From: Pseudeuparius sepicola
Taxonomy: Eukaryota > Arthropoda > Insecta > Coleoptera > Anthribidae
Direction of reading: 5' to 3'
DNA: 64,000 nt
NCBI GenBank assembly: GCA_963920635.1
Contig: OY987298.1
Coordinates: 112,024,035 to 112,088,034 of the forward strand
The notes under the pieces are model-generated. The model searched no databases and had not been told where the DNA came from. It was given only the letters and a program-made list of their open reading frames with translations. The number at the start of each line of letters is the position of its first letter. Position 1 is the first letter of the stretch. Position numbers and translations under genes: made by a program. Below, in pieces: positions 4,491-56,839 of the stretch.

Positions 4491-6440
4491 TATTAATCTC
4501 TCTAATTAAGCTCACAGGTATCTTAAAGCTGTATAAAATAGATCATCATACAGTTTCCTTTTTAGAACACGTTATGACAACCTGGCGCACTAAGATACAA
4601 CTCAGAACCGCAGACAGTAACATCGAGACCGACACAATCAACATCCGAAGAGGGATTTTCCAAGGAGATTCACTCAGTCCACTGTGGTTCTGCATGGCGA
4701 TGAACCCTCTATCACATCGGTTGAACTCTACAAAATATGGCTTCGCTATCAAAAGCAACAACGCAGAAGCGATCAAGTTGAATCACCTATTATATATGGA
4801 TGATTTAAAACTGATCGCCGCAACCAAAAACCAACTAACGCAAATGCTTAAAATTGTAGAGGAGTTCTCCAGGGACATCGGAATGCTGTTTGGACTGGAC
4901 AAGTGCCGCACCCTTAGTATCATCCGGGGAAAGCTCGAACAAAGCGCACACGAGATGCAGGACGGCCAGGAGATCGAAGCAATGAGCAAGGGAGATACAT
5001 ACAAGTATCTCGGGATGAAACAAGCTCAAAGGATAGACCATCGAACAATGAAGACTGATTTAACGAATGAATTCATCAAGAGAGTAAGACAAGTAGTGCG
5101 AACTGATCTTAACAGCAGGAATTTGTTTAAGGCCCTGAACACGTATGCGTGCTCTGTACTCAGCTATTCGTTCGGAATAGTGAATTGGACCAACACGGAC
5201 ATCAACAACCTGCAGCGAAAAGTTAGGACACTACTGACAAAAGCTCATAAACATCATCCCCGTAGCGCCGTAGAAAGAACTACTCTGCCACGTCAACTAG
5301 GAGGAAGAGGATTGGCAGACCTCAGCAAGCAATTGGACCAACAAATAATAAATCTGCGTAATTATTTCCAGAGACAGGCCAACAGCTCCACACTACATAA
5401 AGCTATATGCGGAGCAGACGTCTCAACACCGCTACGTCTGACGGAACACGAGCGTCAAAATCACCACCGAACCGACAACGATAAACTACAGAGGTGGTTG
5501 GGGAAGCCGCTGCACGGGAGACATCCTAATGAGGTTAACCAGGAACATGTCGACAAGTTAGCGTCGAACTATTGGCTGACCTCGGGACGAATGTTCCCCG
5601 AGACGGAAGGCTTCCTACTGGCCATACAAGATCAGGTTATACCAACTCGCAACTACCTAAAATTCATTGTAGGAGATGCATCGGTAGTGGATGACAGATG
5701 CAGATACGGGTGCCCAACTTCAGAAACAATCAGGAGGATGTCAGATGTTCGCATCAACGGAATATAAGGAACGACACGATTCGGTTGCCAAGATCTTGCA
5801 CCGGGAACTGGCGGAAAAGCTGCTGCTTGTGCAGACAGAAAGGGTCCCATATTACAACTACACACCTGAGCCTGTTCTTGAGAACAGCAACTACAAGATG
5901 TACTGGGATCGTACAGTTCTGACTGATCAACGAGTTGCCCATAACAGACCGGACCTTATAATAGTTGATAAAATTTCTAGGAAGACAACTCTGATTGATG
6001 TGGCCATCCCGAACAACAACAACCTGCGTGTGAAGCAAGTCGAGAAGATCGCGAAGTACAGAGACTTAGAAGAACGAATTAGAAGGCAATGGGAAATGGA
6101 GAACGTCCAGACGATTCCAATCATCATGTCAACAACTGGTGTTATACCAAAAAGTTTGCTGAGAAACATCAAGGAGCTGAATCTAACTGATAGTCTTTAC
6201 AGGTCCATGCAGAAAGCGGTACTACTTGCGACAGCCCGAACCGTCAGGAAATTCATGGGGAATGCAGGATCGTCCAAGAACATCAATGTCACCTAGGGCC
6301 CGATAACATGGCAAGGGTCTCGTCCGAGCCAGATCCTTTTGGTATCCGGGATGCCCGGGATCTGAGTGAATGTTCCCCGTAGAGGGAGTGCGAATGCCTT
6401 TTGGCTAAGTCGATATAATATTAATAGTAATATTTAACTA
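4466..6440 (+). mobile_element. 5'-truncated R2/R4/Dong-type non-LTR retrotransposon
   Basis: The element begins abruptly within reverse transcriptase, directly after an AATAATAATAATAACAATAA tract (4466 onwards). It ends in a roughly 120-bp 3' UTR followed by ATAATATTAATAGTAATATT. Dong and relatives insert into TAA repeats, so the flanking tracts fit target-site use, although the exact ends are not resolved. The GC content is clearly higher than the surroundings, suggesting a younger insertion. Confidence 0.7.
4502..6296 (+). pseudogene. Retrotransposon polyprotein fragment: RT C-half plus restriction-like endonuclease
   Basis: The frame is open from about 4502 through ATG 4574 to 5767, then shifts to the frame of 5691-6296. 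The RT part shows FQGDSLSPLWF and the catalytic box LLYMDDLKLIA; the N-terminal RT motifs with the first Asp are missing through 5' truncation. Downstream are CRYGC (first half of the CCHC finger) and, in the second frame, GCQMF. The shift falls exactly in the finger and removes its His. The C-terminus has RPDLIIVDK and TLIDVAIP with a following EKIAKYRDLEER. This is the PD-(D/E)XK endonuclease layout of R2/R4-clade elements, rather than the APE endonuclease of Jockey/RTE elements. Stop TAG is at 6294-6296. The assignment to R4/Dong within this superclade is an inference. Confidence 0.85.
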
Positions 6441-28792: not shown

Positions 28793-28910
28793 ATGAGCGT
28801 GAAAGCAGCAACGAATTTTCTAGCAACGGATTTGTTGCGCGTCGCGCGGTGGTCCCCGCGGGCGGGACAATACCGCCTGCATGGATAGTCTAGGCCGCCA
28901 GTTCTTTACC
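28793..28910 (+). repeat. Left unique TIR of the foldback element
   Basis: Starts ATGAGCGTGAAAGCAGC and ends TAGGCCGCCAGTTCTTT. It is almost identical to the reverse complement of 34635-34749. GC content is well above the surroundings. Confidence 0.85.
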
Positions 28911-30905
28911 GTGCAAATGCGCATTTTAACTTGTATGAAAAATTTTTTGCGGGAAATGGATGCTAATAGGTTCCTTCGAATGTTCTGAGAATATCAGAAT
29001 TTGCTTCCCTCAACTTACCCCCTTTTCACCCCCCAATCCGAAAACATAAAAAAACCGTGCAAATGCGCATTTTAAATTGCATGAAAAATGTTCCTGCGGG
29101 AAATGGATGCTAATAGGCCCCCACGTATGTTCTGAGAATCTCAGAATTTGCTTCCCTCAACTTACCCCATTTTCACTCCTCAATCCGAAAATATAAAAAA
29201 ACCATGCAAATGCGCATTTTAACTTGTATGAAAATTTTTTTGCGGGAAATGGATGCTAATAGGTTCCTTCGAATGTTCTGAGAATATCAGAATTTGCTTC
29301 CCTCAACTTACCCCCTTTTCACCCCCCAATCCGAAAACATAAAAAAACCGTGCAAATGCGCATTTTAAATTGCATGAAAAATGTTCCTGCGGGAAATGGA
29401 TGCTAATAGGCCCCCACGTATGTTCTGAGAATCTCAGAATTTGCTTCCCTCAACTTACCCCATTTTCACTCCTCAATCCGAAAATATAAAAAAACCATGC
29501 AAATGCGCATTTTAACTTGTATGAAAATTTTTTTGCGGGAAATGGATGCTAATAGGTTCCTTCGAATGTTCTGAGAATATCAGAATTTGCTTCCCTCAAC
29601 TTACCCCCTTTTCACCCCCCAATCCGAAAACATAAAAAAACCGTGCAAATGCGCATTTTAAATTGCATGAAAAATGTTCCTGCGGGAAATGGATGCTAAT
29701 AGGCCCCCACGTATGTTCTGAGAATCTCAGAATTTGCTTCCCTCAACTTACCCCATTTTCACTCCTCAATCCGAAAATATAAAAAAACCATGCAAATGCG
29801 CATTTTAACTTGTATGAAAATTTTTTTGCGGGAAATGGATGCTAATAGGTTCCTTCGAATGTTCTGAGAATATCAGAATTTGCTTCCCTCAACTTACCCC
29901 CTTTTCACCCCCCAATCCGAAAACATAAAAAAACCGTGCAAATGCGCATTTTAAATTGCATGAAAAATGTTCCTGCGGGAAATGGATGCTAATAGGCCCC
30001 CACGTATGTTCTGAGAATCTCAGAATTTGCTTCCCTCAACTTACCCCATTTTCACTCCTCAATCCGAAAATATAAAAAAACCATGCAAATGCGCATTTTA
30101 ACTTGTATGAAAATTTTTTTGCGGGAAATGGATGCTAATAGGTTCCTTCGAATGTTCTGAGAATATCAGAATTTGCTTCCCTCAACTTACCCCCTTTTCA
30201 CCCCCAATCCGAAAACATAAAAAAACCGTGCAAATGCGCATTTTAAATTGCATGAAAAATTTTCCTGCGCGAAATGGATGCTAATAGGTTCCTTCGAATG
30301 TTCTGAGAATATCAGAATTTGCTTCCCTCAACTTACCACCTTTTCACCCCCCAATCCGAAAACATAAAAAAACCGTGCAAATGCGCATTTTAAATTGCAT
30401 GAAAAATTTTCCTGCGGGAAATGGATGCTAATAGGTTCCTTCGAATGTTCTGAGAATATCAGAATTTGCTTCCCTCAACTTACCCCCTTTTCACCCCCCA
30501 ATCCGAAAACATAAAAAAACCGTGCAAATGCGCATTTTAAATTGCATGAAAAATTTTCCTGCGGGAAATGGATGCTAATAGGCCCCCACGTATGTTCTGA
30601 GAATCTCAGAATTTGCTTCCCTCAACTTACCCCACTTTCACCCCTCAATCCGAAAACATAAAAAAACCGTGCAAATGCGCATTTAAACTTGTATGAAAAA
30701 ATTTTTTGCGGGAAATGGATGCTAATAGGTTCCTTCGAATGTTCTGAGAATATCAGAATTTGCTTCCCTCAACTTACCCCCTTTTCACCCCCCAATCCGA
30801 AAACATAAAAAAACCGTGCAAATGCGCATTTTAAATTGCATGAAAAATTTTCCTGCGGGAAATGGATGCTAATAGGCCCCCTCATATTATTTCGGCACAA
30901 TCTCA
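28911..30905 (+). repeat. Satellite array, left block, 146/147-bp units in dimeric order
   Basis: About 13-14 units. Unit starts (GTGCAAATGCG or ATGCAAATGCG) fall at 28911, 29057, 29204, 29350 and 29497, alternating 146 and 147 bp. Two subtypes alternate. Type A has GGTTCCTTCGAATG and ATATCAGAA; type B has GGCCCCCACGTATG and ATCTCAGAA. The 293-bp A-B dimer is repeated almost identically from about 29057 to 30220, then the order becomes irregular. Every unit carries the 12-bp palindrome AAATGCGCATTT. Confidence 0.9.
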
Positions 30906-30974
30906 GAATTATCATCCCTTAACTTCCCCCCTTTTTACCCTTCTATACTAAATCCTAAAAAAGCCGTGCGCATA

Positions 30975-33900
30975 TGCGCATTTTTTTAATGTTTTAGGAT
31001 AGAGGGGTGAAAATGGGGTAAGTTGAGGGAAGCAAATTCTGAGATTCTCAGAACATACGGGGAGGCCTATTAGCATCCATTTCCCGCAGGAAAATTTTTC
31101 ATGCAAGTTAAAATGCGCATTTGCACGGTTTTTTTAAGTTTTCGGATGGAGGGGTGAAAATGGGGTAAGTTGGGGGAAGCAAATTCTGATATTCTCAGAA
31201 CATTCGAAGGGACCTATTAGCATCCATTTCCCTCAGGAAAATTTTTCATACAACTTAAAATGCGCATTTGCACGTTTTTTTTTATGTTTTAGGATTGGGG
31301 GGTGAAAAGGGGGTAAGTTGAGGGAAGCAAATTCTGATATTCTCAGAACATTCGAAGGAACCTATTAGCATCCATTTTCCGAAAAAAAATTTTTCATACA
31401 AGTTAAAATGCGCATTTGCACGGTTTTTTTATGTTTTCGGATTGAGGGGCGAAAATGGGGTAAGTTGAGGAAAGCAAATTCTGAGATTCTCAGAACATTC
31501 GAAGGGACCTATTAGCATCCATTTCCCGCAGGAAAATTTTTCATACAAGTTAAAATGCGCATTTGCACGGTTTTTTATAAGTTTTCGGATAGATGGGTGA
31601 AAATGGGGTAAGTTGAGGGAAGCAAATTCTGATATTCTCACAACATTCGAAGGAACCTATTAGCATCTATTTCCCTCAGGAAAATTTTTCATACAAGTTA
31701 TAATGCGCATTATTTGCACGGTTTTTTTTATGTTTTCGGATAGAGGGGTGAAAATGGGGTAAGTTGAGGGAAGCAAATTCTGAGATTCTCAGAACATACG
31801 TGGGGGCCTATTAGCATCCATTTCCCGCAGGAAAATTTTTCATGCAATTTAAAATGCGCATTTGCACGGTTTTTATATGTTTTCGGATTGAGGGGTTAAA
31901 ATGGGGTAAGTTGAGGGAAGCAAATTCTGAGATTCTCAGAACATACGTGGGGGCCTATAAGCATCCATTTCCCGCAGGAAAATTTTTCATGCAAGTTATA
32001 ATGCGCATTTGCACGTTTTTTTTTTTCACGTTTTCGGATGGAGGGGTGAAAATGGGGTAAGTTTAGGGAAGCAAATTCTGATATTCTCAGAACATTCGAA
32101 GGAACCTATTAGCATCCATTTTCCGCAAAAAAAAAATTCATGCAATTTAAAATGCGCATTTGCACGGTTTTTTTATGTTTTCGGATAGAGGGGTGAAAAT
32201 GGGGTAAGTAGAGGGAAGCAAATTCTGAGATTCTCAGAATATACGAGGGGGCCTATTATCATCCATTTCCCGCAGGAAAATTTTTCGTGCAAGTTAAAAT
32301 GCGCATTTGCACGTTTTTTTATGTTTTCGGATTCAGGGATGAAAAGGGGGTAAGTTGAGGGAAGCAAATTCTGAGATTCTCAGAATATACGAGGGGGCCT
32401 ATTATCATCCATTTCCCGCAGGAAAATTTTTCGTGCAAGTTAAAATGCGCATTTGCACGGTTTTTTTAAGTTTTCGGCTTAAGGGGTGAAAATGGGGTAA
32501 GTTGAGGGAAGCAAATTCTGATATTCTCAGAACATTCAAAGGGACCTATTAGCATCCATTTTCCGCAAAAAAAAATTCATACAAGTTGAAATGCGCATTT
32601 GCACGGTTTTTTTATGTTTTCGGATAGAGGGGTGAAAATGGGGTAAGTAGAGGGAAGCAAATTCTGAGATTCTCAGAACATACGAGGTGGCCTATTAGCG
32701 TCCATTTCCCGCAGGAAAATTTTGCATGCAAGTTAAAATGCGCATTTGCACGTTTTTTTATGTTTTCGGATTCAGGGATGAAAAGGGGGTAAGTTGAGGG
32801 AAGCAAATTCTGAGATTCTCAGAATATACGAGGGGGCCTATTATCATCCATTTCCCGCAGGAAAATTTTTCGTGCAAGTTAAAATGCGCATTTGCACGGT
32901 TTTTTAAGTTTTCGGATTGAGGGGTGAAAATGGGGTAAGTAGAGGGAAGCAAATTCTGAGATTCTCAGAACATACGAGGGGGCCTACTAGCATCCATTTT
33001 CCGCAGGAAATTTTTTCATGCAAGTTAAAATGCGCATTGGCACGGTTTTTTAATTTTTCGGATTGAGGGGTGAAAATGGGTTAAGTTGAGGGAAGCAAAT
33101 TCTGATATTCTTAGAACATTCGAAGGAACCTATTAGCATCCATTTCCCTCAGGAAAATTTTTCCTGCAATTTAAAATGCGCATTTGCACGGTTTTTTTAT
33201 GTTTTCGGATTGAGGGGTGAAAATGGGGTAAGTCGAGGGAAGCAAATTCTGAGATTCTCAGAACATACGTGGGGGCCTATTAGCATCCATTTCCCGCAGG
33301 AAAATTTTTCCTGCAATTTAAAATGCGCATTTGCATGGTTTTTTTATGTTTTCGGATTGAGGGGTGAAAATGGGGTAAGTAGAGGGAAGCAAATTCTGAT
33401 ATTCTCAAAACATACGAGGGGGCCTATAAGCATCTATTTCCCGCTGGAAAATTGTTAATGCAAGTTAAAATGCGCATTTGCACGGTTTTTTAAGTTTTCG
33501 GATTGAGGGGTGAAAATGGGGTAAGTAGAGGGAAGCAAATTCTGAGATTCTCAGAACATACGTGGGGGCCTATTAGCATCCATTTCCCGCAGGAAAATTT
33601 TTCAAACAATTTAAAATGCGCATTTGCACGTTTTTTTTATGTTTTCGGATTGGGGGGTGAACAGTTGGTAAGTTGAGGGAAGCAAATTCTGATATTCTCA
33701 GAACATTCAAAGGGACCTATTAGCATCCATTTTCCGCAAAAAAATTTTTCATACAAGTTAAAATGCGCATTTGCACGGTTTTTTTTATGTTTTCGGATAG
33801 AGGGGTGAAAATGGGGTAAGTTGAGGGAAGCAAATTCTGAGATTCTCAGAACATACGTGGGGGCCTATTAGCATCCATTTCCCGCAGGAAAATTTTTCAT

Positions 33901-34620
33901 GCAATTTAAAATGCGCATTTGCATGGTTTTTTTATGTTTTCGGATTGAGGGGTGAAAATGGGGTAAGTAGAGGGAAGCAAATTCTGATATTCTCAAAACA
34001 TACGAGGGGGCCTATAAGCATCTATTTCCCGCTGGAAAATTGTTAATGCAAGTTAAAATGCGCATTTGCACGGTTTTTTAAGTTTTCGGATTGAGTTGAG
34101 GGAAGCAAATTCTGATTTTCTCAGAACATTCAAAGGGACCTATTAGCATCCATTTTCCGCAAAAAAAAATTTCATACAAGTTAAAATGCGCATTTGCACG
34201 GTTTTTTTATGTTTTCGGATAGAGGGGTGAAAATGGGGTAAGTTGAGGGAAGCAAATTCTGAGATTCTCAGAACGTACGAGGTGGCCTACTAGCATCCAT
34301 TTCCCGCAGGAAAATTTGTCCTGCAAGTTAAAATGCGCATTTGCACGGTTTTTTAATTTTTCGGATTGAGAGGTGAAAATGGGGTAAGTTGAGGGAAGCA
34401 AATTCTGATATTCTCAGAACATTCAAAGGGACCTATTAGCATCCATTTTCCGCAAAATTTTTTTTCAAACAAGTTAAAATGCGCATTTGCACGGTTTTTT
34501 TTATGTTTTCGGATAGAGGGGTGAAAATGGGGTAAGTTGAGGGAAGCAAATTCTGAGATTCTCAGAACATATCATCCATTTCCCGCAGGACAATTTTCCA
34601 TGCAAATTAAAATACGTACG
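30975..34620 (-). repeat. Satellite array, right block in opposite orientation
   Basis: About 25 units of the same satellite on the other strand (plus-strand text AAAATGCGCATTTGCACGG... GAGGGGTGAAAATGGGGTAAG... TCTGAGATTCTCAGAA). They are more varied than the left block: spacer and T-run lengths differ, and a shortened unit lies near 34090-34120. Open frames within it are by-products of the repeat. Confidence 0.9.
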
Positions 34621-44525: not shown

Positions 44526-44567
44526 TATGTAAGTAGTTAAGTAAGGGGGTTTCTGGATGGCACCTGT

Positions 44568-44870
44568 CCATCCGGAGTGACCATTGTTCAGGGTCATTGC
44601 TGAAGAAGTGACGTGTCTTTCAAGGTCATTGCCGAAGACCAGAGGCTGTTGAAGAAGTGACGTCATTGCCGAGTCGACGATGGTCAGAGGCTGTTGAAAG
44701 CGAAGAAGTGTTCAATGTCATTGCCGAAGAACTCGACAATGACCAGAGGATGTTGAAGCCGACTTGGACATCGGGGAGGGGGTGCCGAAGAGGCTGCAGG
44801 GGCAGAGGGTTGGGGCGGGTGGTGCCGAAGAGGCTTCAAGGTCATGAAGAAGTTTTCAATTGCCGAACCA
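44568..44870. repeat. Subterminal GC-rich imperfect repeats of the left arm
   Basis: Overlapping copies of GAAGAAGTG, ATTGCCGAAG, GACCAGAGGCTGTTGAAG and TCAAGGTCATTG, with a C/G-rich core near 44775-44830. The mirrored set lies at 51090-51342 and 54242-54360. Repeated short motifs just inside the tips are typical of transposase or replication-protein binding regions; that role is an inference. Confidence 0.6.
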
Positions 44871-45051
44871 GAGGCCGAGGCTATGACCTCATCGTTCGAA
44901 ACATTTTTCCTGGAAAAGCTCCCAGTAATTTTCTAGAAACTTCTACTGATTTAGCGTCCTTTAACACGTAGAATAAAAGTGCTAACTCTACAATTTTTAG
45001 GGGATTCTAGGAAAGTGCTGACTAATTTCTCTTTCAATGTAAAAATTATTC

Positions 45052-45363
45052 TTAAAAAAATTGCAGCAAAATTATTGTATTGTAAATAATGTTCTCAGTC
45101 CACTCAAAAAAATCTACAGTAATTCCGTTTGATGTATGAAAGAAAACAAATTGATTGTTTTGCATATTCATTATTATTTTTACACGCACATTTAAATATT
45201 CTTTGTATTTATTTGCAAGAACAATATTTAGATATGTTGAAGAATCTTGAATGCGTTTTTGAAATTTATGACGGTCAAGCGCATATTGCATCCATGGTCC
45301 TTTCCTATCCCATTGTGAAATTTCTCGAATATCTACAGTTTGTGCGAAGCGCACACGTTTCAT
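45052..45363 (-). CDS. ORF3 copy in left TIR arm, PPP1R15-like with C-terminal extension
   Basis: The first 58 residues match the right-arm ORF3: RVRF at 3-6, Trp18, GPW at 22-24, Asp30, KF at 33-34 and RI at 37-38. A frame change in the sequence after YKEYLN removes the original stop and adds about 45 residues of unrelated translation (to 103 aa). This suggests decay outside the conserved region. It starts at ATG 45363 and overlaps the ORF2 stop. Confidence 0.6.
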   Translation of the reverse strand: MKRVRFAQTVDIREISQWDRKGPWMQYALDRHKFQKRIQDSSTYLNIVLANKYKEYLNVRVKIIMNMQNNQFVFFHTSNGITVDFFEWTENIIYNTIILLQFF

Positions 45364-45509
45364 TTTTTGTTATTTTCCTTTTCCAAACTGAGGGTTTGCA
45401 GCTGAAGTGTTAATTCATACAAATTTAGTTGTTCCTTTAAACGTTGTAACGCACACAAATAATTGTTTAATTTTTCTTTATAACATTCAACTGCACTAGA
45501 TGGTTTCAT
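45360..45509 (-). CDS. ORF2 copy in left TIR arm (49-aa coiled-coil protein)
   Basis: Intact 49-codon frame starting ATG at 45509, inside the last codons of the ORF1 copy and ending in TGA that overlaps the ORF3 start. It differs from the right-arm copy by a few substitutions (for example LCALQRLKEQLNLYEL). The Leu spacing fits a short coiled coil. Confidence 0.5.
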   Translation of the reverse strand: MKPSSAVECYKEKLNNYLCALQRLKEQLNLYELTLQLQTLSLEKENNKK

Positions 45510-45809
45510 TCTCATAAATAAACTCAACATTCACTGTTTCTCCAAAATGCTCCGCCACCTTTATATAAATCTGACCGGCTTCAACTTCCTGCTGTATATG
45601 TTGCAAAAATCTTTCGGTGAAAAGAATATCAAACCTTGCAGGTAAGGTCACCTTGTTCTCCTCCAGGTCTAATGAGTATTCTTGAACCAAACTTGGTAAC
45701 TTGTCTCCAGATATTTATCACTTTAAGTGGTTGATTTAGTGGCAAATCAACACACCTTGCAAGGGCTTGTACCTTAGAACACTTTGTTTAAATATTCAAC
45801 AGATTCCAT
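45496..45809 (-). pseudogene. ORF1 copy in left TIR arm, frameshifted
   Basis: Inverted counterpart of the intact ORF1 at 50187-50489. The start ATG (45807-45809) is kept, but a short insertion after MESV and one extra base near 45675 break the frame. The C-terminal two thirds (from LEENKVTLPARFDILF to FIYENETI) are still open. It overlaps the start of the ORF2 copy exactly as in the right arm. Confidence 0.75.
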
Positions 45810-46064
45810 CGTGTTGCTAGGTGATGTCAGTAACAATTAAAATTTTTAGATTGTCACCAATATTTATATGTCTTTAATCCTACGTCATTTTTGCTGAAAG
45901 ATTTTCTAGAAAATTCAAGAAAGGGGTTGAATATTGTAATGTCAGCATTTACATTTCTGAGAAATACGGATGTTTATAATTTTTCGAAAGCACGTTCCGA
46001 CAGGGAAAAAAATCCTGATGATTCAACATCCTTGAAGGTCGTTATTTTACACATCCTGAAAATT

Positions 46065-46445
46065 CTAGAACAAAAAAGTGTTGCAGTCATGTTCTCGGTT
46101 CACTGACAAAAGATTGCAATTAATTCTAATTATTTGCCTTATATTATTGAAGCCAATGTCATTGACTGTATTCAAAACCAAAGTGGTACGAGTTATTTTG
46201 CTTGCTCTCTGCTTTGATGTCCGCCCGCAGAAAGAAAGTACTTTTATTTTATTGTAAATATTATTGGAATAAACACGAAACACATGCATGTATTTATTAA
46301 TTTCCTTTAGCAGATAGCGGTCAAAAGTTCTTTGAATGGAGGTAGCATTTCGGATTTCAGCAGAAAATGTGTTTACATATTTGAACATTTCCCCAACGGG
46401 AAAGTTTAGCATATGAGTAGTACCGTGGGTAGAAGGTTTTGGCAT
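46065..46445 (-). CDS. ORF4: hypothetical protein in left TIR arm
   Basis: A 126-codon frame starting MPKPSTHG, on the same strand as and upstream of ORF1-3 in this arm. The right-arm counterpart (from about 49535) begins MPKPSYP but is soon broken by a stop. A 66-codon piece (49594-49794) there keeps the matching DRYRLKKINKYMHMF segment. The conserved core KINKYMH-F-V-SNNIY-KIK is rich in Lys, Asn and Tyr. I do not recognise it. Conservation between the arms is also expected from the DNA repeat alone, so coding status is uncertain. Confidence 0.35.
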   Translation of the reverse strand: MPKPSTHGTTHMLNFPVGEMFKYVNTFSAEIRNATSIQRTFDRYLLKEINKYMHVFRVYSNNIYNKIKVLSFCGRTSKQRASKITRTTLVLNTVNDIGFNNIRQIIRINCNLLSVNREHDCNTFLF

Positions 46446-46550
46446 ATTGGTTTATGGGGGAGGAAAACTGGGGATTTTTTTTCTCTCAAGCTCAGCAAAT
46501 CTTAAACATTTAAATATGAAGACATCACGGCAGATTGAACAGACTCGTGC

Positions 46551-48540
46551 TAACACTCCATTTTTGCTACACTTTCCACCAAGGAAAAAAATGGCGTTCT
46601 TCCTGGAAATAGTGCGTTTTCAAATCGTAGAGATTGCAACCATAATAGTGCGAGTACATTTGCCGCCACCACAATGTGTAAGTACAAAAAAATATTACTC
46701 ATGAAGGCAATATTTATGATCATTTTATGTTCAAGGTTTTGAAAAAATTACAGAAGAGCAGCGACAGAATATTTTTAAATATTATAATAAGTTGGAATAT
46801 GCAAACAAACAATTATTTCTATATGCAGAGAAATGAAATAATATACAGGAAGGTAGATGCGGAAAAGAACAAGCAGTTTACAGTTTCTTACAGATTGCCC
46901 AAAAAACATTGAAGACGTTAATTCTGGTATGGTTATACTATAACTGGAGTGGCCGTAGATTCGAATGCCATTAATACTGGCCATAATAATTCTCTTCCTG
47001 AAGAAAGTAAAGGAAGTAGAGAAATATAGTAAATGGGTTAATGTTAGTTTGGTTACTGTTTGTAAACAGATGTTTATCCACACCCTTGGGCATAAATCCG
47101 ATGGTATCATATATTCATTCCTTAGAAGAACATGTAACGATCTTCCTTCCCTTCAAGATAACAGAGGAAAAGCGAATGCAACAAAAATGAAAGAAATAGC
47201 AGAAATAAATTATAATGATATTAAGTTGCATATTATAATAATAATAATAATAATTCTCACCCTCACAATACTCCAAACTAGGAGTACCCCAGAAACATAT
47301 CATCCACAGATATCTCATTATAATCTCGTTCATGCACCACACAGGAGATTATCTACCATCTGATCTGACCATACATCAGATGGATAAAGATTTTAATTCC
47401 AAAAACAGTAGTCGTCGCGTGTGCTATGAAACATACCGAAGAGTTTTCGATAAAGAAAATATTGGTTTCGCAGCACCAACACAAGATTAATGCGGTACTT
47501 GTTCAATTTATAAACAACATTCGCATTCAAATGAAGATGAAGCTGAATCTGAATTCAACAGAACGGAGTCAATTACAGAAGAACAGGAACAAGTTTCTCC
47601 AAATATTCAACTTGACTCAATTAATTTCTCCGCTTGTGATAAATAGAAATTGCATAAACAAAGATAATATACAGTAGCTAGACAGATTTATAGTGACGAC
47701 AGTTCTGGAAATGTAGAAGCCAATTACGAAATATGCAAAAAGTCTCGCTTCTGCTAAAAATGTCTCTAAAAAATGCATTCTTCGTCAGCAGGCTTATAGT
47801 TTTCCATCAAACTTTCGCAAATTTGAGACCATCAGATGAGAATAAATGTATTATTTGGAATGAAGCAGTAATGGGCAGAAACGGTCCAGATGTTGCATCT
47901 GCGTACTACAATGCTGTGATATAAGACTACAAGAGTCGACGAAGCACATTGTGTTTTGGGCGGATAATTGTGTATCCCAGAATAAGAACTGGGTGTTGTT
48001 CACAGCTTGTTTAATTTTCATAAGCGAGAACTGGGGTCCTGAGAGTATAACCTTTAAGTACTTCGAGCCAGGCCATAGTTTTATGAAGGCTGATTCGGTG
48101 CACGGCCAAATTGGCAAAAAGTGGAACAAAAGCAAAGAAATTTTAGACTTTGAGGTCATGGAAAATCTTATTAAAAGCTCGAACAAAGCAAATTCGGTAA
48201 TCAGTCTTAGAAGTGAAGATTTCAGGCATTTTGAAAGTTGATGCGTCCAACGGAAAAAATATGGCACAATCCCTAAAATCAGTGTTTTTAAGCCTGTTCA
48301 ATTCAGAAAAGGTTCTAAGAAGTTATTTTACAAGCTAGAATTAGAACAAACTGATTTTTTTGAAGTGTCGGTTTTGAAATCAAAATTCAAACTCGAACTT
48401 CCCGCGAAGGTTAACTGTAATAGAGGCGTGAACACAAAAAAGAAGGATATAATTTTAAAGGATCTAGTGCCTCATAATATGCCCCCCCAGAAAACAAATA
48501 TTTTGGCAGAATTTGCCAAATTGTGATACCAAAGAAGACT
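46551..48540 (+). pseudogene. Decayed DUF7869-like gene between the TIR arms
   Basis: Pieces in different frames line up in one order. They are a Cys-rich start (about 46551-46676), a possible intron (GTAAGT 46677 to TTCAAG 46735), and EKITEEQRQNIFKYYNKLEY with YANKQLFLY. Next come VCKQMFIHTLGHKSDGIIYS and DNRGKANATK (47050-47190), then YHPQISHYNLVHAPHRR, and ENIGFAAPTQD, CGTCSIYKQHSHS (about 47455-47530). Then follow NLRPSDENKCIIWNEAVMGR and FWADNCVSQNKNWVLFTACL with KYFEPGHSFMKADSVHGQIG (47951-48241), and finally PPQKTNIWQNLP. The DNCxxQNKN and GH-F--AD blocks resemble DUF7869-type proteins, which are abundant and often transposon-linked in insects; the family name is from memory. Stops, frameshifts and a LINE stub (47226-47300) show it is dead. 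Confidence 0.65.
47226..47300 (-). repeat. LINE or SINE 3' end stub, copy 3, inside the DUF7869-like gene
   Basis: About 50 bp of the same 3' end as copies 1 and 2 (CTCACCCTCACAATACTCCA on the plus strand), joined to an ATAATAATAATAATAATAAT tract. It interrupts the gene between NYNDIKLH and YHPQISHY. It was the later event. Confidence 0.7.
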
Positions 48541-48947
48541 TGGGAGAGTCACACGAATAATGATAAGAAACATCTTATATTATAATAAGAAACTACTTGA
48601 AAATATTTTTCTTATAATTCTTCATATGACTCTACTAAGTAGTTTTCTTTGCTGACGAAGACATGAGTTTTTTTTTCGATTTTATTTTGTATAAGAATAA
48701 GTATTCAAAATATTTATTATGTTTTGATTTTATAACGAAAATTTAAATACATAAAAATGTATTTTACTTGCCTGTGTTTTAAAAATAATTAGTGTCAAAA
48801 TAATATAAAAATGGAATTCAATCTAGTTACTGGCCCAATGAATTATGTTTATAATTTTATAGTTATGAGTTATGTTATGACTAATCTACTTAATTAATTA
48901 ATTGATATATTTTTGTCGTTAAGGCCTTTGCTAGAAACCTAAATAAC

Positions 48948-49255
48948 TTAACTTACTTTGTTTTTGTATGGTACTTCGGAGAGATGAAATGAGACAAGTC
49001 AACTTACTTACTTTTACTGTAGCAATACATAGTGGTTGGAATAGACTAGTTAACTTACTTTCTTTATCTATAGCTATTTCGGAGAGATGAAATGAGACAA
49101 GTCAACTTACTTACTTTTTACTGTAGCAATACGTAGTGGTTGGAATAGAGTAGTTAACTTACTTTGTTTATGTACAGCTACTTCGGAAAAATGAAATGAG
49201 ACAAATCAACTTACTTACTTTTACTACAGCAATACATAGTGGTTGGAAAAGGCTA
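48948..49255 (+). repeat. Tandem repeat of ~117-bp units, three copies
   Basis: Each unit runs AACTTACTTT... ACTTCGGAGAGATGAAATGA GACAAGTCAACTTACTTACTTTT... GCAATACATAGTGGTTGGAA (given as blocks). The third copy is the most diverged (CTTCGGAAAAATGAAATG). It lies just inside the right TIR arm and has no counterpart on the left side. Confidence 0.8.
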
Positions 49256-50186
49256 TTAACTATAAACTTGTAAATAACACGTTTCTTTCAAAAAATATTT
49301 ATAATCCACCTTAAAATACGAAATAAGTTCAAAATATATTGTAATTGAACAAAGTTTTAAAAAATAACCATCATTAACAAATAAATTATTACCAACCAAA
49401 CTTCAGAATTTTTAAATCGCCGTATCCAAAAATTGGGAAATTAGAGTTATAAAACTTTTACTATTGCTGGGCAGTGTTTAAGATTTGCTGAGCTTGAGAG
49501 AACAAAAAAAAGTCCCCCAGTTTCATAAACCTATATGCCAAAGCCTTCTTACCCACGATATTACTCATATGGTGATCTTTTCCCTCAGGGGACATGTCCA
49601 AATATGAAAAACTTTTTGACCGCTATCGGCTAAAGAAAATTAATAAATACATGCATATGTTTCTTGTTCATTCCAATAATATTTACACTAAAATAAAAGT
49701 AGGTACTTTCTTTCTGCGAGCGCACATCAAAGCCGAGAGCAAGAAAAATAACACGTATGACTTTGGTGTGAATACGATCGACGACTTCGAGTAAATAATA
49801 TAAGACAAATAATTAGAATTAATTGCGATATTTTTTTCAGTGGGTCGAGAACATGATTGCAACACTTTTTCTGAAATATTCTAGAATTTTCGGGATGTGT
49901 AAAGTAATGACCTTCAAGGATGTTGAATCATGAGGGTTTTTTTCCTGCCGGAACGTGCTTTTGAAAATATAAACATCCGTATTTCCCAGAAATGATATTG
50001 CTGATATCAGCCGCTTTCATTTTCTCTATCAGAACGTCCTTTTCGAAAATTATAAACATCCATATTTCCCAGAAATGAAAATGCTGACATTACAATATTA
50101 TATAAAAATGACGTAGGCGTAAAGTCATATAAATTGAGACGAAAATCTAAAAATTTTAATTGAAACTGACATCACCTAGCAACAAG

Positions 50187-50489
50187 ATGGAATCTGTAAA
50201 CAAGTGTTCTAAGGTAAAAGCCTTTGCAAGCTGTGTTGATTTGCCAATAAATCAACCTCTTAAACTGATAAATATCTGGAGGCAAGGTACCCAGTTCGGT
50301 TCAAGAATACTCATTGAACTGGAGGAGAACAAGGTGACTTTACCTGCAAGGTTTGATATTCTTTTCACCGAAGGATTTTTGCAACATATACAGCAGGAAG
50401 TTGAAGCCGGTCAGATTTCTATAAAGGTGACGGAGCATTTTGGAGAAACAGTGAATGTGAAGTTTATTTATGAGAATGAAACCATCTAG
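50187..50489 (+). CDS. ORF1: conserved small protein of the Polinton-like element
   Basis: 100 codons from ATG 50187 (MESVNKCSKV) to TAG. This ATG is preferred because the left-arm copy has an ATG at the mirrored site, whereas the open frame upstream has none. Predicted beta-rich core: PLKLINIWRQGTQFGSRIL, VTLPARFDILFTEGFLQ, ISIKVTEHFGETVNVKFIY. It has no signal peptide or membrane segment. The pattern of short strands, an LPxRF motif and a helix could fit a small single-stranded nucleic-acid-binding (OB-like) fold, but that is speculation; I do not recognise the family. The last 14 bp overlap the ORF2 start. It is the only intact copy of the two in the element. Confidence 0.6.
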   Translation: MESVNKCSKVKAFASCVDLPINQPLKLINIWRQGTQFGSRILIELEENKVTLPARFDILFTEGFLQHIQQEVEAGQISIKVTEHFGETVNVKFIYENETI

Positions 50490-50625
50490 TGCAGTTGAAT
50501 GTTATAAAGAAAAATTAAACAATTATTTGTGTGAGTTACAACGTTTAAAGGAACAAATCAATTTGTATGAATTAAGACTTCAGCTGCAAACCCTCAGTTT
50601 GGAAAACGAAAATAACAAAAAATGA
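50476..50625 (+). CDS. ORF2: 49-aa coiled-coil protein
   Basis: ATG at 50476 lies inside the ORF1 stop region (GAGAATGAAACCATCTAG) in another frame. TGA at 50623-50625 overlaps the ORF3 ATG (AAATGAAACG). The sequence MKPSSAVECYKEKLNNYLCE is followed by regularly spaced Leu residues to LSLEN and a basic end NNKK. It is charged and helical, and likely a dimerising or partner-binding helix. It is kept open in both TIR arms. Too short to classify by family; support comes from the tight overlap with both neighbours and from its preservation. Confidence 0.5.
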   Translation: MKPSSAVECYKEKLNNYLCELQRLKEQINLYELRLQLQTLSLENENNKK

Positions 50626-50819
50626 AACGTGTGCGCTTCGGAGAAACTGTAGATATTCGAGAAATTTCACAATGGGATAGGAAAGGACCATGGATGCAAT
50701 ATGCGCTTGACTGTCATAGATTTCAAAAACGCATTGAAGAATCTTCAACATATCTAAATATTGTTCTTGCAAATAAATACAAAGAATATTTAAATATGTG
50801 TAAAAATAATAATGAATAA
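50622..50819 (+). CDS. ORF3: PPP1R15/GADD34-like PP1-binding mini-protein
   Basis: 65 codons. It has the PP1 docking motif RVRF at residues 3-6, a hydrophobic strand ETVDIREI, Trp18, then GPWMQYALD (22-30), RF (33-34) and RI (37-38), followed by a helix to YKEYL. This order (RVxF, about 15 residues, GPW-x2-x-A-x-D, RF-x2-RI, helix) is that of the C-terminal domain of PPP1R15 proteins. These recruit protein phosphatase 1 to eIF2alpha and reverse the stress or antiviral translation block. Some large DNA viruses carry stand-alone versions of the same domain. Here almost the whole protein is that domain. The start overlaps the ORF2 stop by 4 bp (ATGA), suggesting coupled translation. Function is inferred from motifs only. 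A fragment captured from a host PPP1R15 gene is the main alternative source. Confidence 0.65.
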   Translation: MKRVRFGETVDIREISQWDRKGPWMQYALDCHRFQKRIEESSTYLNIVLANKYKEYLNMCKNNNE

Positions 50820-51853
50820 ACCTATCCAAAACAATCAATTTGTTTTCTTTCATACATCAAACGGAATTACTGTAGATGATACTGAGAACATTATTTACAA
50901 TGCAATACCTACTTTTGCTGGAATTTTTTAAAGAATAATTTTTACATTGAAAAAGAAATTAGTAAGCACTTTCCTAGAATCCCCTAAAAATTGCAGAGTT
51001 AGCACCTTTATTCTACGTGTTAAAGGACGCTAAATCAGTAGAAGTTTCTAGAAAATTGCTGGGAGCTTTTCCAGGAAAAATGTTTCTGAACGATGAGGTC
51101 ACAGCCTCGGCCTCTGGTTCGGCAATTGAAAACTTCTTCATGACCTTGAAGCCTCTTCGGCACCACCCGCCCCAACCCCCCGCCCCTGCAGCCTCTTCGG
51201 CACCCCCCTCCCCGATGCCCAAGTCGGCTTCAACACCCTCTGGTCATTGTCGACTTCTTCGGCAATTACCTTGAACACTTCTTCGCTTTCAACAGCCTCT
51301 GACCTTTGTCGACTCGGCAATGACGTCACTTCTTCAACAGCCGAGGCCAACGACAAAGACAGGCCACGGCGCTAACCCATAATCGCGTAGTCACGTGACC
51401 AACTTAGTGCTATTTAATAAAAGGCATTTTTGGAGATAAGTAGAAAAAACAAATTTCGTAACAATTTGGCAAGTTTTCTTTCATCTATTACATTATTGGT
51501 TTTGTGCATCCAAGCTTTTTCTAATTGTTTTTTCAAAATTTTCAACCTGCATCAGCTGTTTTGGGTACTCACAATATTTTGGCACTTCTCAAAAATTGTT
51601 GGGACATCACCTTCCTTTAGCTTAGGTGATATTCTCTATAGGTATTATTTTCCTCCCACAACACATTTGTCCACTTTAATTATTGTTTCACTTTCTTGAA
51701 AATGTGTTAGTCACACATACTTAAGGGTTTTTTAGAAATTAAATCTCAGTTGGGATTTGACGAATCCATTTTTGACGGAAATTTTCATCCCGAGGCAAAA
51801 CAAATGTTTGTTATGGCGACACTTTCTTCCTGGCTTTTGTAATCTGTATAAAT

Positions 51854-53498
51854 TACGGAGTGCTATAAGAAGGAGATATATCGATACAGCACTTTTTCAA
51901 AATTTCTAGCCTTACTTTTATTGCAGTTCAAGTTTTCGACGTCGGTGGCGCGTCAGTCGTTCGCGGCGCTATTTGATTGGCGTTTTTTGTGAAGTTCCAC
52001 AAATTTGTGCTATTTTTATATTAAATTCAGTGGATTTTTCGCGTATTTTGCTAACATTTATAAAAAATGAGTGATATGAAAGGAAATACAGATATAACCT
52101 ACGTCTTCGTTGTGTTACTCGAAAAAATTTGAGATTTAAACAGAAGGTAAAATATCAAATTTTGGTTTCCATTTTATTTTTCATTTCCACTTTCAGATTG
52201 CTAAACTTATAAGTTAGGTAGAGCAATGCAAAAAAAGTGCCATGTTGACCTCTGGGTCTTTAGAGCAGATTATATCAGAACTACCAAGCTCTCAACAAGA
52301 AGCAGTTAGAATGTGTTTTGCTGCTTCAAAAGTAACCAACCCAAAAATCAGCGTTATACACTGCCATGGATTTATGAGTGTCTTCAAATAAGAATTAAAG
52401 GAAGAGCTGTACATACGAGCATTGCGAAAACAAAAACTCCTACCACTTCTTTGTTGTGTAACTTTAAGTAAATATATTAGAAGAATGAGTGGGTGTTATA
52501 TCAACTTTCGAACTTCTTCGAAAAAAGTCGTCCGGTATGAAATCAGAGGAAAAAAGGGGTATTTATACATCTAGCAGATTATTTTTCTTTATTATTATTT
52601 TTCCTTATCGTAGGTAAACTTCTTATAGGCGAGATGAAATTGAATGAAACATTAATGGTTTTACTGATTTGGGTGATTATACACCTTTACATCAAAAAAT
52701 GAAAAGGGAGATCATGCTTTAGTAATGATGTTTCAACCATTCAGAGGTTCATGGGTGCAATCTTTGGCATGCTTTTTAAGTAAAGGAAGAATATCATCGA
52801 TAAAGATAAAAAAGAAAAAACTAGAGAATTGAGGCAACAGTCAAAATTGTAATTTACTTTAAAATATTTAATCTAGGCTAATTTATTATAGTTACAAATA
52901 TTTGTAAAATTTCACAAATAAAATACATTTTCACACCTTGTTTTTTTATTATTGAATAAACAAAGATCTATTTTAATTCGATACTTCACAAAAGCTATAT
53001 TTCCCAAATACTCCAGGAAAATAGATAGCGAATAATTAATAATAATAATTGTTTATGTCCAAAAAAATGGCTTTATTACCCAACTTGATCATATGCCCAG
53101 AAATCTCAACGTAAGTTAATTTTTTAATAATTCACCAAATTAATATTTGCGATAGTTTATTCAGCTCCGTTGTGGGATAGCCATACAGCCCTATGAATAA
53201 AGAACCCCTTATTCATTGATATAGCCAATCGATTTTTATTTATTTCAGAGCCGTCAAGAATATTTCAAAATATACTTGATATAATCCATGCACCACCCAA
53301 TATACACATATACAAACATTGAGTTAATTAATAATTCATTGAAAATAATTTTTGTTTTAAAGCGCTATTCCGTACATTTTTATACTCGGTTAGAACACGT
53401 GCGCCTCTAGCGGTGTTTTCAAAAAGCTCAATTACAAGTCCGATTTCAGGCCCATTAGGTTGACATTGCGATTTATCTCCTTCTTATAGCGCTCCGTA
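51854..53498 (+). mobile_element. P-type DNA transposon (1645 bp) nested in the Mutator-like element
   Basis: TIRs of about 30 bp: TACGGAGTGCTATAAGAAGG and the mirrored TACGGAGCGCTATAAGAAGG, continuing AGATA. The perfect 8-bp duplication GTATAAAT lies at 51846-51853 and 53499-53506. Both sizes are right for P elements. The empty site can be read in copy 2 (about 56317-56335), which lacks this insert. It contains a broken P/THAP9-like transposase. It is internally deleted compared with full P elements of about 3 kb. Confidence 0.9.
52070..52850 (+). pseudogene. Broken P-element/THAP9-like transposase
   Basis: A Leu-rich coiled-coil piece (AKLIS, about 52200) runs into SLEQIISELPSSQQEAVRMC, the segment before the P transposase core. 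A second-frame piece LRIKGRAVHTSI and LSKYIRRMSGCYINF (about 52385-52510) follows. Later comes DEIELNE, then GFTDLGDYTP and GDHALVMMFQPFRGSWVQSL (about 52640-52775), a signature stretch of P/THAP9 transposases. A possible short intron lies at about 52149-52197 (GTAAAA to TTTCAG). The N-terminal THAP zinc finger and the C-terminal part are missing. Several frameshifts and stops are present. Confidence 0.8.
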
Positions 53499-54241
53499 GT
53501 ATAAATATACTATAAACAGACCCAATATTTGGTATTTAGTTTATTTTTTACGAAATAAAAATGAAAACTAACCTCAGTAGGTAGGTATACTGCAAATATT
53601 GACGAGGTCTCAGTTGTTCGGCAGCGTGAAAGACCGAATAGATAAACCGTATCGGGGCGTGGGTCGACAGCGAAAATCAACGGTTACAACACTGATTTAT
53701 TTCGCACAAGGTGAATGGTGAATACAATAAATACACAAACCCGAACGTGGTCAACGGGAACGGCTTCCAGCCACCCGGACCGTCTGAACTCGCGGATCTC
53801 CCGTAAGCAGTTCACCCCTCTGTGAATCAGGCTCCACTGTCCAATACGGTCCATGTCCATAATAGTCCATTCCGGAATTCCGGGCTCCCTATTCTGTGGT
53901 TCGGGGGAGAATTCCCCTTTACAGCGCTCACGCGTCGGTGCGAGCGGCACCAATACTCCTGGACAGCACGGCTCCCACCAGTTTATCGTGCTCCCACCTA
54001 GAGGCATAATAACACCTGGGCGGTTCCCCTCCGCCAGGACACACGCGCACTCTAGTGTTTCTAAAATTGTTTCTAAAATATAAACTAAGACGTTTAAAAA
54101 CACTTTAAACATTGAAAACTTCTCAAAACCCAATCTCCCGCTTCCAGTTATGTGACAAATGACATGTAACGTCTGACTAAGATGGTCACGTGATTTTTGT
54201 GCGCCAGGGCCTGTCCTTATAGTAGGCCTTGTTCAACAGCC

Positions 54242-54412
54242 TCTGGTCATTGTCGACTTCTTCGGCAATGACCTTGAACACTTCTTCAACAGCCTCTGGT
54301 CTTCGGAAATGACCTTGAAAGACACGTCACTTCTTCAGCAATGACCCTGAACGATGGTTACTCTGGATGGACAGGTGCCATCCTGATCCAGAAACGCCCT
54401 TACTTAACTACT
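54242..54412 (-). repeat. Right TIR arm, outer part displaced by the insertion
   Basis: Continues the arm broken at 51342: TCTGGTCATTGTCGACTTCT through CCTTACTTAACTACT. Its inverted partner is about 44532-44700. Confidence 0.85.
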
Positions 54413-54418
54413 TATGTA

Positions 54419-55661: not shown

Positions 55662-56839
55662 CAAGGCCTACTATAAAGGCAGGCCCTGGCGCACAAAAAT
55701 CACGTGACCATCTTAGTCAGACGTTACATGTCATTTGTCACATAACTGAAAGCGGCAGCTTGGGTTTTCAATGTTTAAAGTGTTTTTAAACGTCTTAGTT
55801 TATATTTTAGAAACAAGTTTGTGTCTAGTGCGCGTGTGTCCTGGCGGAGGGGAACCGCCCAGGTGTTATTATGGCCTGTGGGAGTCCTGCCGTCCAAGAG
55901 TATTGGTGCCGCCCGCACCGACGCGACGCGACGCCCGAACCACAGAGTAGGGAACCCGGAATGGACTATTATGGACATGGGACAGTATTAGTATTGGACA
56001 GTGGAGCCTGAGACACAGAGGAGTGAACTGCTTACTGGAGATCCGCGAGTTCAGACGGTCCGGGTGGCTGGAAGCCGTTCCCGTTGACCACGTTCGGGTT
56101 TGTTGTATTTATTGTATTTACCATTCACCTTGTGCGAAATAAATCAGTGTTGTAACGTACTCGAGGATTTTCGTTGTCGGCCTACGCCCTGATATGGGCT
56201 TTCACGCTGCCGATCAACTGAGACCTCGTCAATATTTACAGTATACCTACCGAGGTTAGTTTTCATTTTTATTTCGTAAAAAATAACCTAAATACCAAAT
56301 ATTGGGTCTGTTTATATAATATTTATACATATTACAAAAGCCAGGAAGAAAGTGTCGCCATAACAAACATGTTGTTTTGCCTCGGGATGAAAATTTCCGC
56401 CAAAAATGGATTCGTCAAATTCCAAATGAGATTTAATTTCTAAAAAACCCTTAAGTAACCTATGTGTGGCTAACACATTTTCAAGAAAGTGAAACAATTA
56501 AAGTGGACAAATGTGTTGTGGGAGGAAAATACCTATAGAGAATATCACCTAAGCTAAAGGAACAATTTTTGAGAATGTGCCAAAATATTGTGAGTGCAGT
56601 GCCGTTTAACTCTCAACCTAAAACAGCTAAGGCAGGTTGAAAATTTTGAAAAAACAATTAGAGAAAGCTTGGATGCACAAATCCAATAATGTAATAGATG
56701 AAAGAAAACTTGCCAAATTGTTATGAAATTTGTTTTTTCTACTTATCTCCAAAAATGCCTTTCATTATATAGAACTAAGTTGATCACGTGACTACGCGAT
56801 TATGCGTTAGCGCCGTGGCCTGTCTTTATCGTTGGCCTC
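55662..56839. mobile_element. Mutator-like element, copy 2, opposite orientation
   Basis: Flanked by the perfect 10-bp duplication GCAGTCTTTA (55652-55661, 56840-56849). It starts CAAGGCCTACTATAAAGG and ends TGTCTTTATCGTTGGCCTC. It matches copy 1 in reverse orientation over its whole length, except for the P-type insertion and small indels. A GC-rich core (55830-56110) includes CCGGGTGGCTGGAAGCCGTT and ends with CGAAATAAATCAGTGTTGTA, which carries a poly(A)-signal-like AATAAA. That resembles a captured retroelement or gene 3' end. No transposase gene. Confidence 0.8.

What the first reader, a model, noticed from the sequence alone, without database searches (positions are those of the whole stretch)
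50622..50819. Mobile-element-encoded PPP1R15/GADD34-like mini-protein
The 65-aa ORF3 has RVRF, then W, GPW...A.D, RF and RI in the order and spacing of the PP1/eIF2alpha-targeting domain of PPP1R15. Host and viral versions counter eIF2alpha-kinase translation shutoff. A stand-alone copy inside a transposon-like element suggests it may protect its own expression or help a virus-like life stage. I know of no such report for a Polinton-like element.
Basis: partly seen in the sequence, partly recalled or inferred. Interest (0 to 1): 0.9.

Follow-up and report, generated by a model that had tools for sequence, protein, structure and literature searches.

The report
PPP1R15-like mini-proteins in animal Polintons
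A virus-like jumping element carries a tiny stand-alone copy of the part of the cell protein PPP1R15 that switches protein synthesis back on under stress, and other such elements in the same genome carry their own versions, which suggests that these elements fight the cell's stress shut-off as some viruses do.

Summary
Confirmed and extended. ORF3 (50622-50819 +, 65 aa) matches Pfam PP1c_bdg above its cut-off (32.6 v 26.1 bits). It keeps most residues known to contact PP1, G-actin and eIF2alpha, and covers roughly the minimal functional core of PPP1R15 and little else. It lies in a cluster of four overlapping ORFs inside long terminal inverted repeats (5'-AG ends, 6-bp TSD TATGTA); an inverted copy lies at 45187-45363. 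The window's element has lost its core genes, but some relatives in the same genome (26 ORF3 matches) sit beside viral-type DNA polymerase B, capsid or PLA2 pieces, so the family is a Polinton/Maverick. A second, young family (30 loci, 24 read; mini-gene copies 0.8% apart) has its own PPP1R15-like mini-gene; the one copy whose flanks I read has capsid, integrase, ATPase and polymerase genes. Two smaller groups exist; the host's own PPP1R15 exon is elsewhere and clearly different. Selection: dN/dS 0.24 (p 6.5e-5) between two groups of mini-genes, near 1 among recent copies; ORF3 alone is not significant in one test. Function (eIF2alpha dephosphorylation through PP1) is inferred, not shown. New variant of a known kind: viral PPP1R15 mimics are known; my searches found none for Polintons.

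The parts
44526..44531 (.). target-site duplication TATGTA, left
44532..46508 (.). left terminal inverted repeat, starts AGTAGTTAAGTAAGG
   Evidence: same outer boundary in L002, L007, L022 with unrelated flanks
45187..45363 (-). left-arm copy of ORF3 (59 codons aligned, then a 2-nt shift; open frame runs on to 45052)
45360..45509 (-). left-arm copy of ORF2
45496..45814 (-). left-arm copy of ORF1, frame broken
46509..49474 (.). core between the arms; no Polinton gene found; contains a decayed DUF7869 reading frame and a 104-bp tandem repeat (48948-49261)
47864..48238 (+). DUF7869 (PF25273) remnant, 25.0 bits, just under its cut-off of 26
49475..51342 (.). right terminal inverted repeat, inner part
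50099..50105 (+). TATA-like TATATAA upstream of the ORF cluster (pattern match only)
50187..50489 (+). ORF1, 100 aa, strand order bbb-a-bb in a low-confidence model
50476..50625 (+). ORF2, 49 aa
50622..50819 (+). ORF3, PPP1R15-core mini-protein; its ATG overlaps the ORF2 stop as ATGA
50812..50931 (+). ORF4, 39 aa, overlaps the end of ORF3
54232..54412 (.). right terminal inverted repeat, outer part, cut off from the inner part by inserted element B (51343-54231, 10-bp TSD TTCAACAGCC)
54413..54418 (.). target-site duplication TATGTA, right

Best explanation
ORF3 is a stand-alone PPP1R15 core encoded by a Polinton/Maverick (virus-like) element. Shown: homology, contact residues, gene context of relatives, presence in at least two Polinton families of one genome, purifying selection between older lineages of mini-genes. 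Inferred: the protein binds host PP1 by RVRF and the R-motif arginine, its helix binds G-actin and offers eIF2alpha to PP1, so Ser51 is dephosphorylated and translation goes on while the element makes its replication and capsid proteins under stress-kinase (PERK/GCN2) shut-off. It is made from a multi-gene transcript, perhaps by re-initiation at the ATGA overlap. The window's own copy is a fossil that has lost its core genes.
For: PF10488 above cut-off. Contacts named in PMC4394352, PMC8500838 and PMC5346070 (passages): RVxF V4/F6, R20 (R658), W24 (W662/W582), D30, R33, F34, R37, I38 and the DP71L leucines L45/L49 are kept; R612 is K54; R587 is L29 (residue matching by the alignment). Human R15B 631-700 suffices in cells; ORF3 spans about that stretch. 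The model has helices 23-40 and 43-63 (pLDDT 59.7), like the kinked actin-binding helix. Polinton context of family 1: PolB 30.1 and 68.6 bits, PLA2 42.6 bits, capsid-type pieces. Family 2, one copy's flanks: DJR capsid 347 bits, rve 50.5, A32-type ATPase 27.8, PLA2 50.9, a 1099-aa frame 36-49% identical to family 1's polymerase pieces; 22 of 24 copies read encode the full 73-aa mini-protein from ATG, mean distance 0.8%. Selection: family 2 v 4 mini-gene dN/dS 0.24, Fisher 6.5e-5; family 3 pairs 0.24-0.60; family 1 ORF1-3 together, singletons N:S 108:29 v shared and divergent 69:44, p 0.003.
Against: For ORF3 alone the singleton-v-shared test is not significant (40:9 v 32:14, p 0.23), and contact positions depart only marginally less often than others (13 of 288 v 72 of 962 cells, p 0.08). 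The two arms in the window diverge neutrally (N:S 15:5, 4:1, 6:0). GPW is lost in families 2-4 (NNY; ANY, TNY or SSY; SSY), so the Trp that matters for activity in mammals is Tyr there. R587 is Leu in family 1. Families 2-4 score below the Pfam cut-off (18.1, 24.1, 18.3 bits). Pfam gave no polymerase match for family 2's 1099-aa frame. No expression, binding or activity data; no complex model; single-sequence models are weak.
Confidence: 0.72

Rival explanations
1. Passenger: the element captured the 3' exon of the host PPP1R15 gene and carries it without use.
For: The host exon starts right at V-R-F behind a TTTTTTTAG acceptor (L025), close to where the mini-genes begin (M-K-x-V-x-F in the rows with ATG); recent copies evolve about neutrally; 11 of 26 family 1 matches carry stops.
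Against: Only about 29-40% identical to the host exon over the matched parts, so not a recent capture, yet contact residues are kept; dN/dS 0.24 with p 6.5e-5 between families 2 and 4; own start codon inside an overlapping gene cluster; present in at least two Polinton families.
Confidence: 0.12
2. PP1 retargeting: the mini-protein binds PP1 but steers it to another substrate, or only takes PP1 away from host regulators.
For: V.F and the R-motif arginine are kept in nearly all rows, while the Trp of GPW is lost in families 2-4 and R587 is Leu in family 1. PMC5346070 (passages) suggests that DP71L mutants which bind PP1 but lack LSAVL may take PP1 away from other partners.
Against: RF..RI, D30 and the hydrophobic pair at 45/49, which serve actin or eIF2alpha rather than PP1 docking, are also mostly kept.
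Confidence: 0.13
3. Shared viral origin: Polinton mini-genes and ASFV DP71L descend from one virus-borne gene rather than from separate host captures.
For: In the PDB the best match of the family 1 and family 2 proteins is DP71L (E 5.1e-8, 0.0022), while the host exon's best is PPP1R15B (6.3e-8) with DP71L at 0.001. The mini-proteins and DP71L's short form are stand-alone and of like size (65-73 v 70-72 aa). At the place of DP71L's LSAVL, 8 of 10 mini-gene rows read L..VL and 2 (L011, L015) L..VI; the host reads I..IF.
Against: One of the four vertebrate-like rows (P0011) reads I..VL, so the motif is not exclusive. Family 3's best match is PPP1R15B and family 4's PPP1R15A. The tree is weak for mini-genes v host plus vertebrates (59/19) and DP71L was left out of it; short proteins can converge.
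Confidence: 0.12

Closest known systems
PPP1R15A/GADD34 and PPP1R15B/CReP (PF10488)
   Same: RVxF, R-motif, W, RF..RI helix, order and spacing; ORF3 spans about the minimal functional core
   Different: no long N-terminal part; 65-73 aa stand-alone gene in a mobile element; one-residue shorter linker than R15B in family 1, GPW lost in families 2-4
African swine fever virus DP71L, short form
   Same: 70-72 aa stand-alone viral PPP1R15 core; family 1's best PDB match; V16, F18, L57 and L61 equivalents kept in ORF3
   Different: different virus class; clear sequence divergence; function shown for DP71L, inferred here
HSV-1 gamma34.5
   Same: viral protein with a GADD34-like C-terminus recruiting PP1 (PMC10807198, passages)
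   Different: herpesvirus protein; not compared by sequence here
Polinton/Maverick elements (adintovirus-like)
   Same: TIRs, 6-bp TSD, 5'-AG ends; PolB and capsid-type pieces in family 1 relatives; DJR capsid, rve integrase and ATPase beside a family 2 copy
   Different: carry a PPP1R15-core gene, which I found in no paper searched; the window copy has lost the core genes and has about 2-kb arms that hold the ORF cluster

Membership tests
PPP1R15 / PP1c_bdg (PF10488) | profile score over curated cut-off | tested here: met
   ORF3 32.6 and left copy's frame 28.7 v 26.1 bits; families 2-4 not met (18.1, 24.1, 18.3)
PPP1R15 / PP1c_bdg (PF10488) | RVxF and R-motif PP1 contacts | tested here: met
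   V4, F6, R20; in 26 family 1 rows V 25, F 26, R 26
PPP1R15 / PP1c_bdg (PF10488) | W, F, R, I residues for actin-dependent activity | tested here: met
   ORF3: W24, F34, R37, I38; in 26 family 1 rows W 22, F 25, R 24, I 23, the rest changed or missing; Trp not met in families 2-4
PPP1R15 / PP1c_bdg (PF10488) | PP1, G-actin binding and eIF2alpha-P phosphatase activity | not testable with these tools
   needs protein; complexes cannot be modelled here
Polinton/Maverick | long TIRs, 6-bp TSD, 5'-AG ends | tested here: met
   6-bp TSD from PMC10045372 and PMC12220804 (passages); 5'-AG recalled, from no call
Polinton/Maverick | PolB and integrase in the window's own element | tested here: not met
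   0 of 30 frames of 45 aa or more in 46400-49600 match PolB, integrase, ATPase or capsid models: a core-less derivative
Polinton/Maverick | PolB and capsid-type genes in relatives with the same ORF cluster | tested here: met
   PolB in L009/L024; tblastn matches to the polymerase-region frames in L002, L003, L005, L006, L020; capsid piece in L005, PLA2 in L017/L020; not seen in the other loci as fetched
Polinton/Maverick | rve integrase in family 1 | tested here: inconclusive
   L022 has rve with H2C2 zinc binding, which could be a Gypsy insertion; family 2 has rve

The most novel reading that the evidence does not exclude
Animal Polintons keep a dedicated viral eIF2alpha-phosphatase adaptor, evidence that they meet the host stress response as infecting viruses do; and, since their mini-genes resemble ASFV DP71L in size, stand-alone form and the L..VL-type motif, DP71L may descend from a gene traded among Polintons and other arthropod DNA viruses.
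Probability: 0.17. Interest if true: 0.92.

Novelty: new variant of a known kind. Interest (0 to 1): 0.8.

Why it matters
PPP1R15 mimics are known from a herpesvirus, ASFV and a coronavirus (PMC10807198, passages). Finding the same core in at least two Polinton families of one genome, one of them young and with capsid genes, is an unusual pointer to how animal Polintons live: as agents that must overcome a host translation shut-off. It gives a 65-73 aa protein that can be tested directly in insect cells, natural variants (GPW lost, R587 changed) that test which PPP1R15 residues matter, and a lead on where ASFV's DP71L came from.

Tried and rejected
Nothing found: the search for homologous proteins with P0001 and P0002 (none). 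With A1 it returned 10 proteins, all with PF10488: one named human PPP1R15B and nine that I read as vertebrate PPP1R15B fragments (no source name given). Scans of viral contigs with P0001, P0002, A1 and a motif (no relative) and of genome contigs with P0002 (none). ORF1 has no family and no convincing PDB match; its bbb-a-bb model (pLDDT 48.7) recalls an OB fold, but Foldseek gave nothing at E 0.001 or better. ORF1 v the family 4 upstream ORF: at best E 0.02 over 27 aa, not claimed. Considered and dropped for the carrier: IS3EU (TA ends) and Ginger (TG ends). DUF7869 as the element's own transposase: not settled. Placing the mini-genes against the host gene in a tree: too weak.

Literature: 10 searches. 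PPP1R15 with Polinton: 0 papers. GADD34 with transposable element: 13 papers, 12 listed, none with a title or abstract start about an element-borne gene. The other lists were capped (for example 25 of 1,176); no title shown describes one. Most subscription papers and preprints are not held.

Full report
Observation. ORF3 is present exactly as described. It matches PF10488 above the curated cut-off, and DP71L and PPP1R15B chains in the PDB. An HMM made only from nine PPP1R15B-like fragments finds 2 of 1213 ORFs in the window, ORF3 and its inverted copy; of 20 shuffled windows one gave a hit, 13.0 bits. Mapping by the alignments onto residues named in PMC4394352, PMC8500838 and PMC5346070 (passages): V4, F6, R20, W24, D30, R33, F34, R37, I38, L45 and L49 are kept, R612 is K54, R587 is L29.

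The element. The arms 44532-46508 and 49475-51342 plus 54232-54412 form inverted repeats. The ends read AGTAGTTAA and are flanked by TATGTA on both sides. The same boundary, with unrelated flanks, is seen in L002, L007 and L022; L006, L010 and L012 come close but differ in the first bases. The right arm is split by element B (51343-54231, 10-bp TSD), itself holding element C (51856-53496, TA on both sides). Without B and one 10-bp TSD the element is 6982 bp. The arms carry ORF1 to ORF4, which overlap one another in the right arm; ORF3's ATG overlaps ORF2's stop. In the core no Polinton gene was found: of 30 frames of 45 aa or more, one matches DUF7869 just under its cut-off; the few other matches are weak and below cut-off. 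The two arms differ by 15 N and 5 S changes in ORF1, 4 and 1 in ORF2, 6 and 0 in ORF3 (gapped codons left out), about the neutral ratio.

The family in the genome. The host assembly (769 Mb, 16 contigs, unnamed) has 26 matches to ORF3, the window's two included, 15 without internal stop (the tool calls such counts lower bounds). 23 loci hold the other 24; in 15 of 23 ORF1 to ORF4 are all found in that order, in the other 8 only some of them. In L009 and its neighbour L024 the cluster stands beside a DNA polymerase B gene (30.1 and 68.6 bits) with an endonuclease VII domain (25.4 bits). Frames of that polymerase region match by tblastn in L003, L005, L006 and L020, and the frame next to it in L002. 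PLA2 pieces lie in L017 and L020, and a piece like family 2's capsid protein in L005; L017 and L020 also match a family 2 frame that I call penton-type from recall only, as it has no Pfam match. So family 1 is a Polinton/Maverick, and the window copy a core-less derivative.

The host gene and other mini-genes. PF10488 searched in the genome gave 62 matches at E 10 or better, 17 over the cut-off: 16 are family 1, one (C9:31346222) I read as the host's own PPP1R15 exon, which begins at V-R-F behind a TTTTTTTAG acceptor and ends in a stop; the gene's other exons were not looked for. The same search rang in 0 of 14 control genomes. The 45 below the cut-off are 8 family 1 copies, 29 loci with 93- or 94-aa open frames (family 2; 23 of them read), 4 with 73- or 74-aa frames (family 3, L029-L032), L034 (a family 2 copy without its ATG), L033 (family 4) and 2 that I did not assign. 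Of 24 family 2 copies read, 23 start with ATG and 22 encode the full 73-aa protein; the mean pairwise distance of the mini-gene is 0.0079 (the shifted tail of L054 included) and no stop lies inside. Beside one family 2 copy (L028) lie genes for double-jelly-roll capsid protein (347 bits), PLA2 protein, A32-type ATPase and rve integrase, and a 1099-aa frame that is 36-49% identical to family 1's polymerase pieces, though Pfam gave it no polymerase match. The flanks of other family 2 copies were not read. In L028 the mini-gene's ATG overlaps the stop of the ORF before it as ATGA, the same junction as ORF2/ORF3; in L033 the overlap is longer. The surroundings of family 3 were not read beyond 1.5 kb, so its carrier is unknown.

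Selection. Among recent family 1 copies dN/dS scatters around 1 or is undefined for lack of changes; the main group v the divergent L011 copy gives 0.28-0.50. A count of singleton v shared or divergent changes over ORF1-3 (22, 27 and 26 rows; rows under half length and gapped codons dropped; the two identical L011 copies as one carrier) gives 108:29 v 69:44, p 0.003; by ORF, p is 0.26, 0.006 and 0.23, so ORF3 alone is not significant there. In 26 family 1 rows contact positions depart in 13 of 288 cells, other positions of residues 2-54 in 72 of 962, p 0.08 (one of two identical rows dropped). The family 2 v 4 mini-gene gives 0.24 with p 6.5e-5, though dS is high (1.25); family 3 pairs give 0.24-0.60, 2 of 6 with p below 0.05.

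Mechanism. Established for mammals and, for the binding of actin, Drosophila: PPP1R15 holds PP1 by RVxF and the R-motif and uses a G-actin-bound helix to present eIF2alpha (PMC4394352, PMC8500838, PMC4394351; passages). ORF3 has these parts and little else, so I think it most likely that it does the same for the element. Shown: homology, context, conservation, selection between lineages. Inferred: translation, binding, activity, benefit. Insects' eIF2alpha kinases PERK and GCN2 as the counterpart, and the host being an insect, are recalled or guessed, not tested.

Relation to DP71L. Family 1 and 2 proteins match DP71L best in the PDB, the host exon matches PPP1R15B best; family 3 matches PPP1R15B and family 4 PPP1R15A best. 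At the place of DP71L's LSAVL, 8 of 10 mini-gene rows read L..VL and 2 L..VI; the host reads I..IF, and of four vertebrate-like rows one reads I..VL, the others lack the V. This may be shared ancestry or convergence. The tree joins families 2, 3 and 4 (89/91) and family 1 (100/99), but does not settle mini-genes v host (59/19).

Limits.

Noticed in passing
L028, L055, L056 (G000 C1): A young Polinton family (mini-gene copies 0.8% apart) with DJR capsid, PLA2, ATPase, rve and polymerase-like frames beside the one copy read; a sign of recent activity in this host.
   Followed up: partly
window 28908-34616: Large array of a roughly 147-bp repeat in two opposite orientations (switch near 30970).
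   Followed up: no
window 51343-54231 and 55662-56839: Two copies of one element (B) with exact 10-bp TSDs (TTCAACAGCC, TAAAGACTGC), the first carrying element C (51856-53496) with TA on both sides.
   Followed up: partly
window 46509-49474: Decayed DUF7869 frame and 104-bp tandem repeats take the place of Polinton genes; part of this core (48822-49482) recurs in L013.
   Followed up: partly
L011 2818-3178 and 5937-6297: Two copies of a divergent family 1 cluster, identical over ORF3, 3.1 kb apart in the same orientation.
   Followed up: no
window 4424-5767 and 1096-1575: Reverse transcriptase frame (RVT_1 56.1 bits) and a DDE_3-like transposase remnant (19.2 bits, under its cut-off).
   Followed up: no
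L029-L032: Family 3 mini-genes (70-71 aa) whose surroundings were read for 1.5 kb only; carrier unknown.
   Followed up: no
L023 2008-3210 (-): Cytochrome P450 frame (176.6 bits) near a broken family 1 copy.
   Followed up: no
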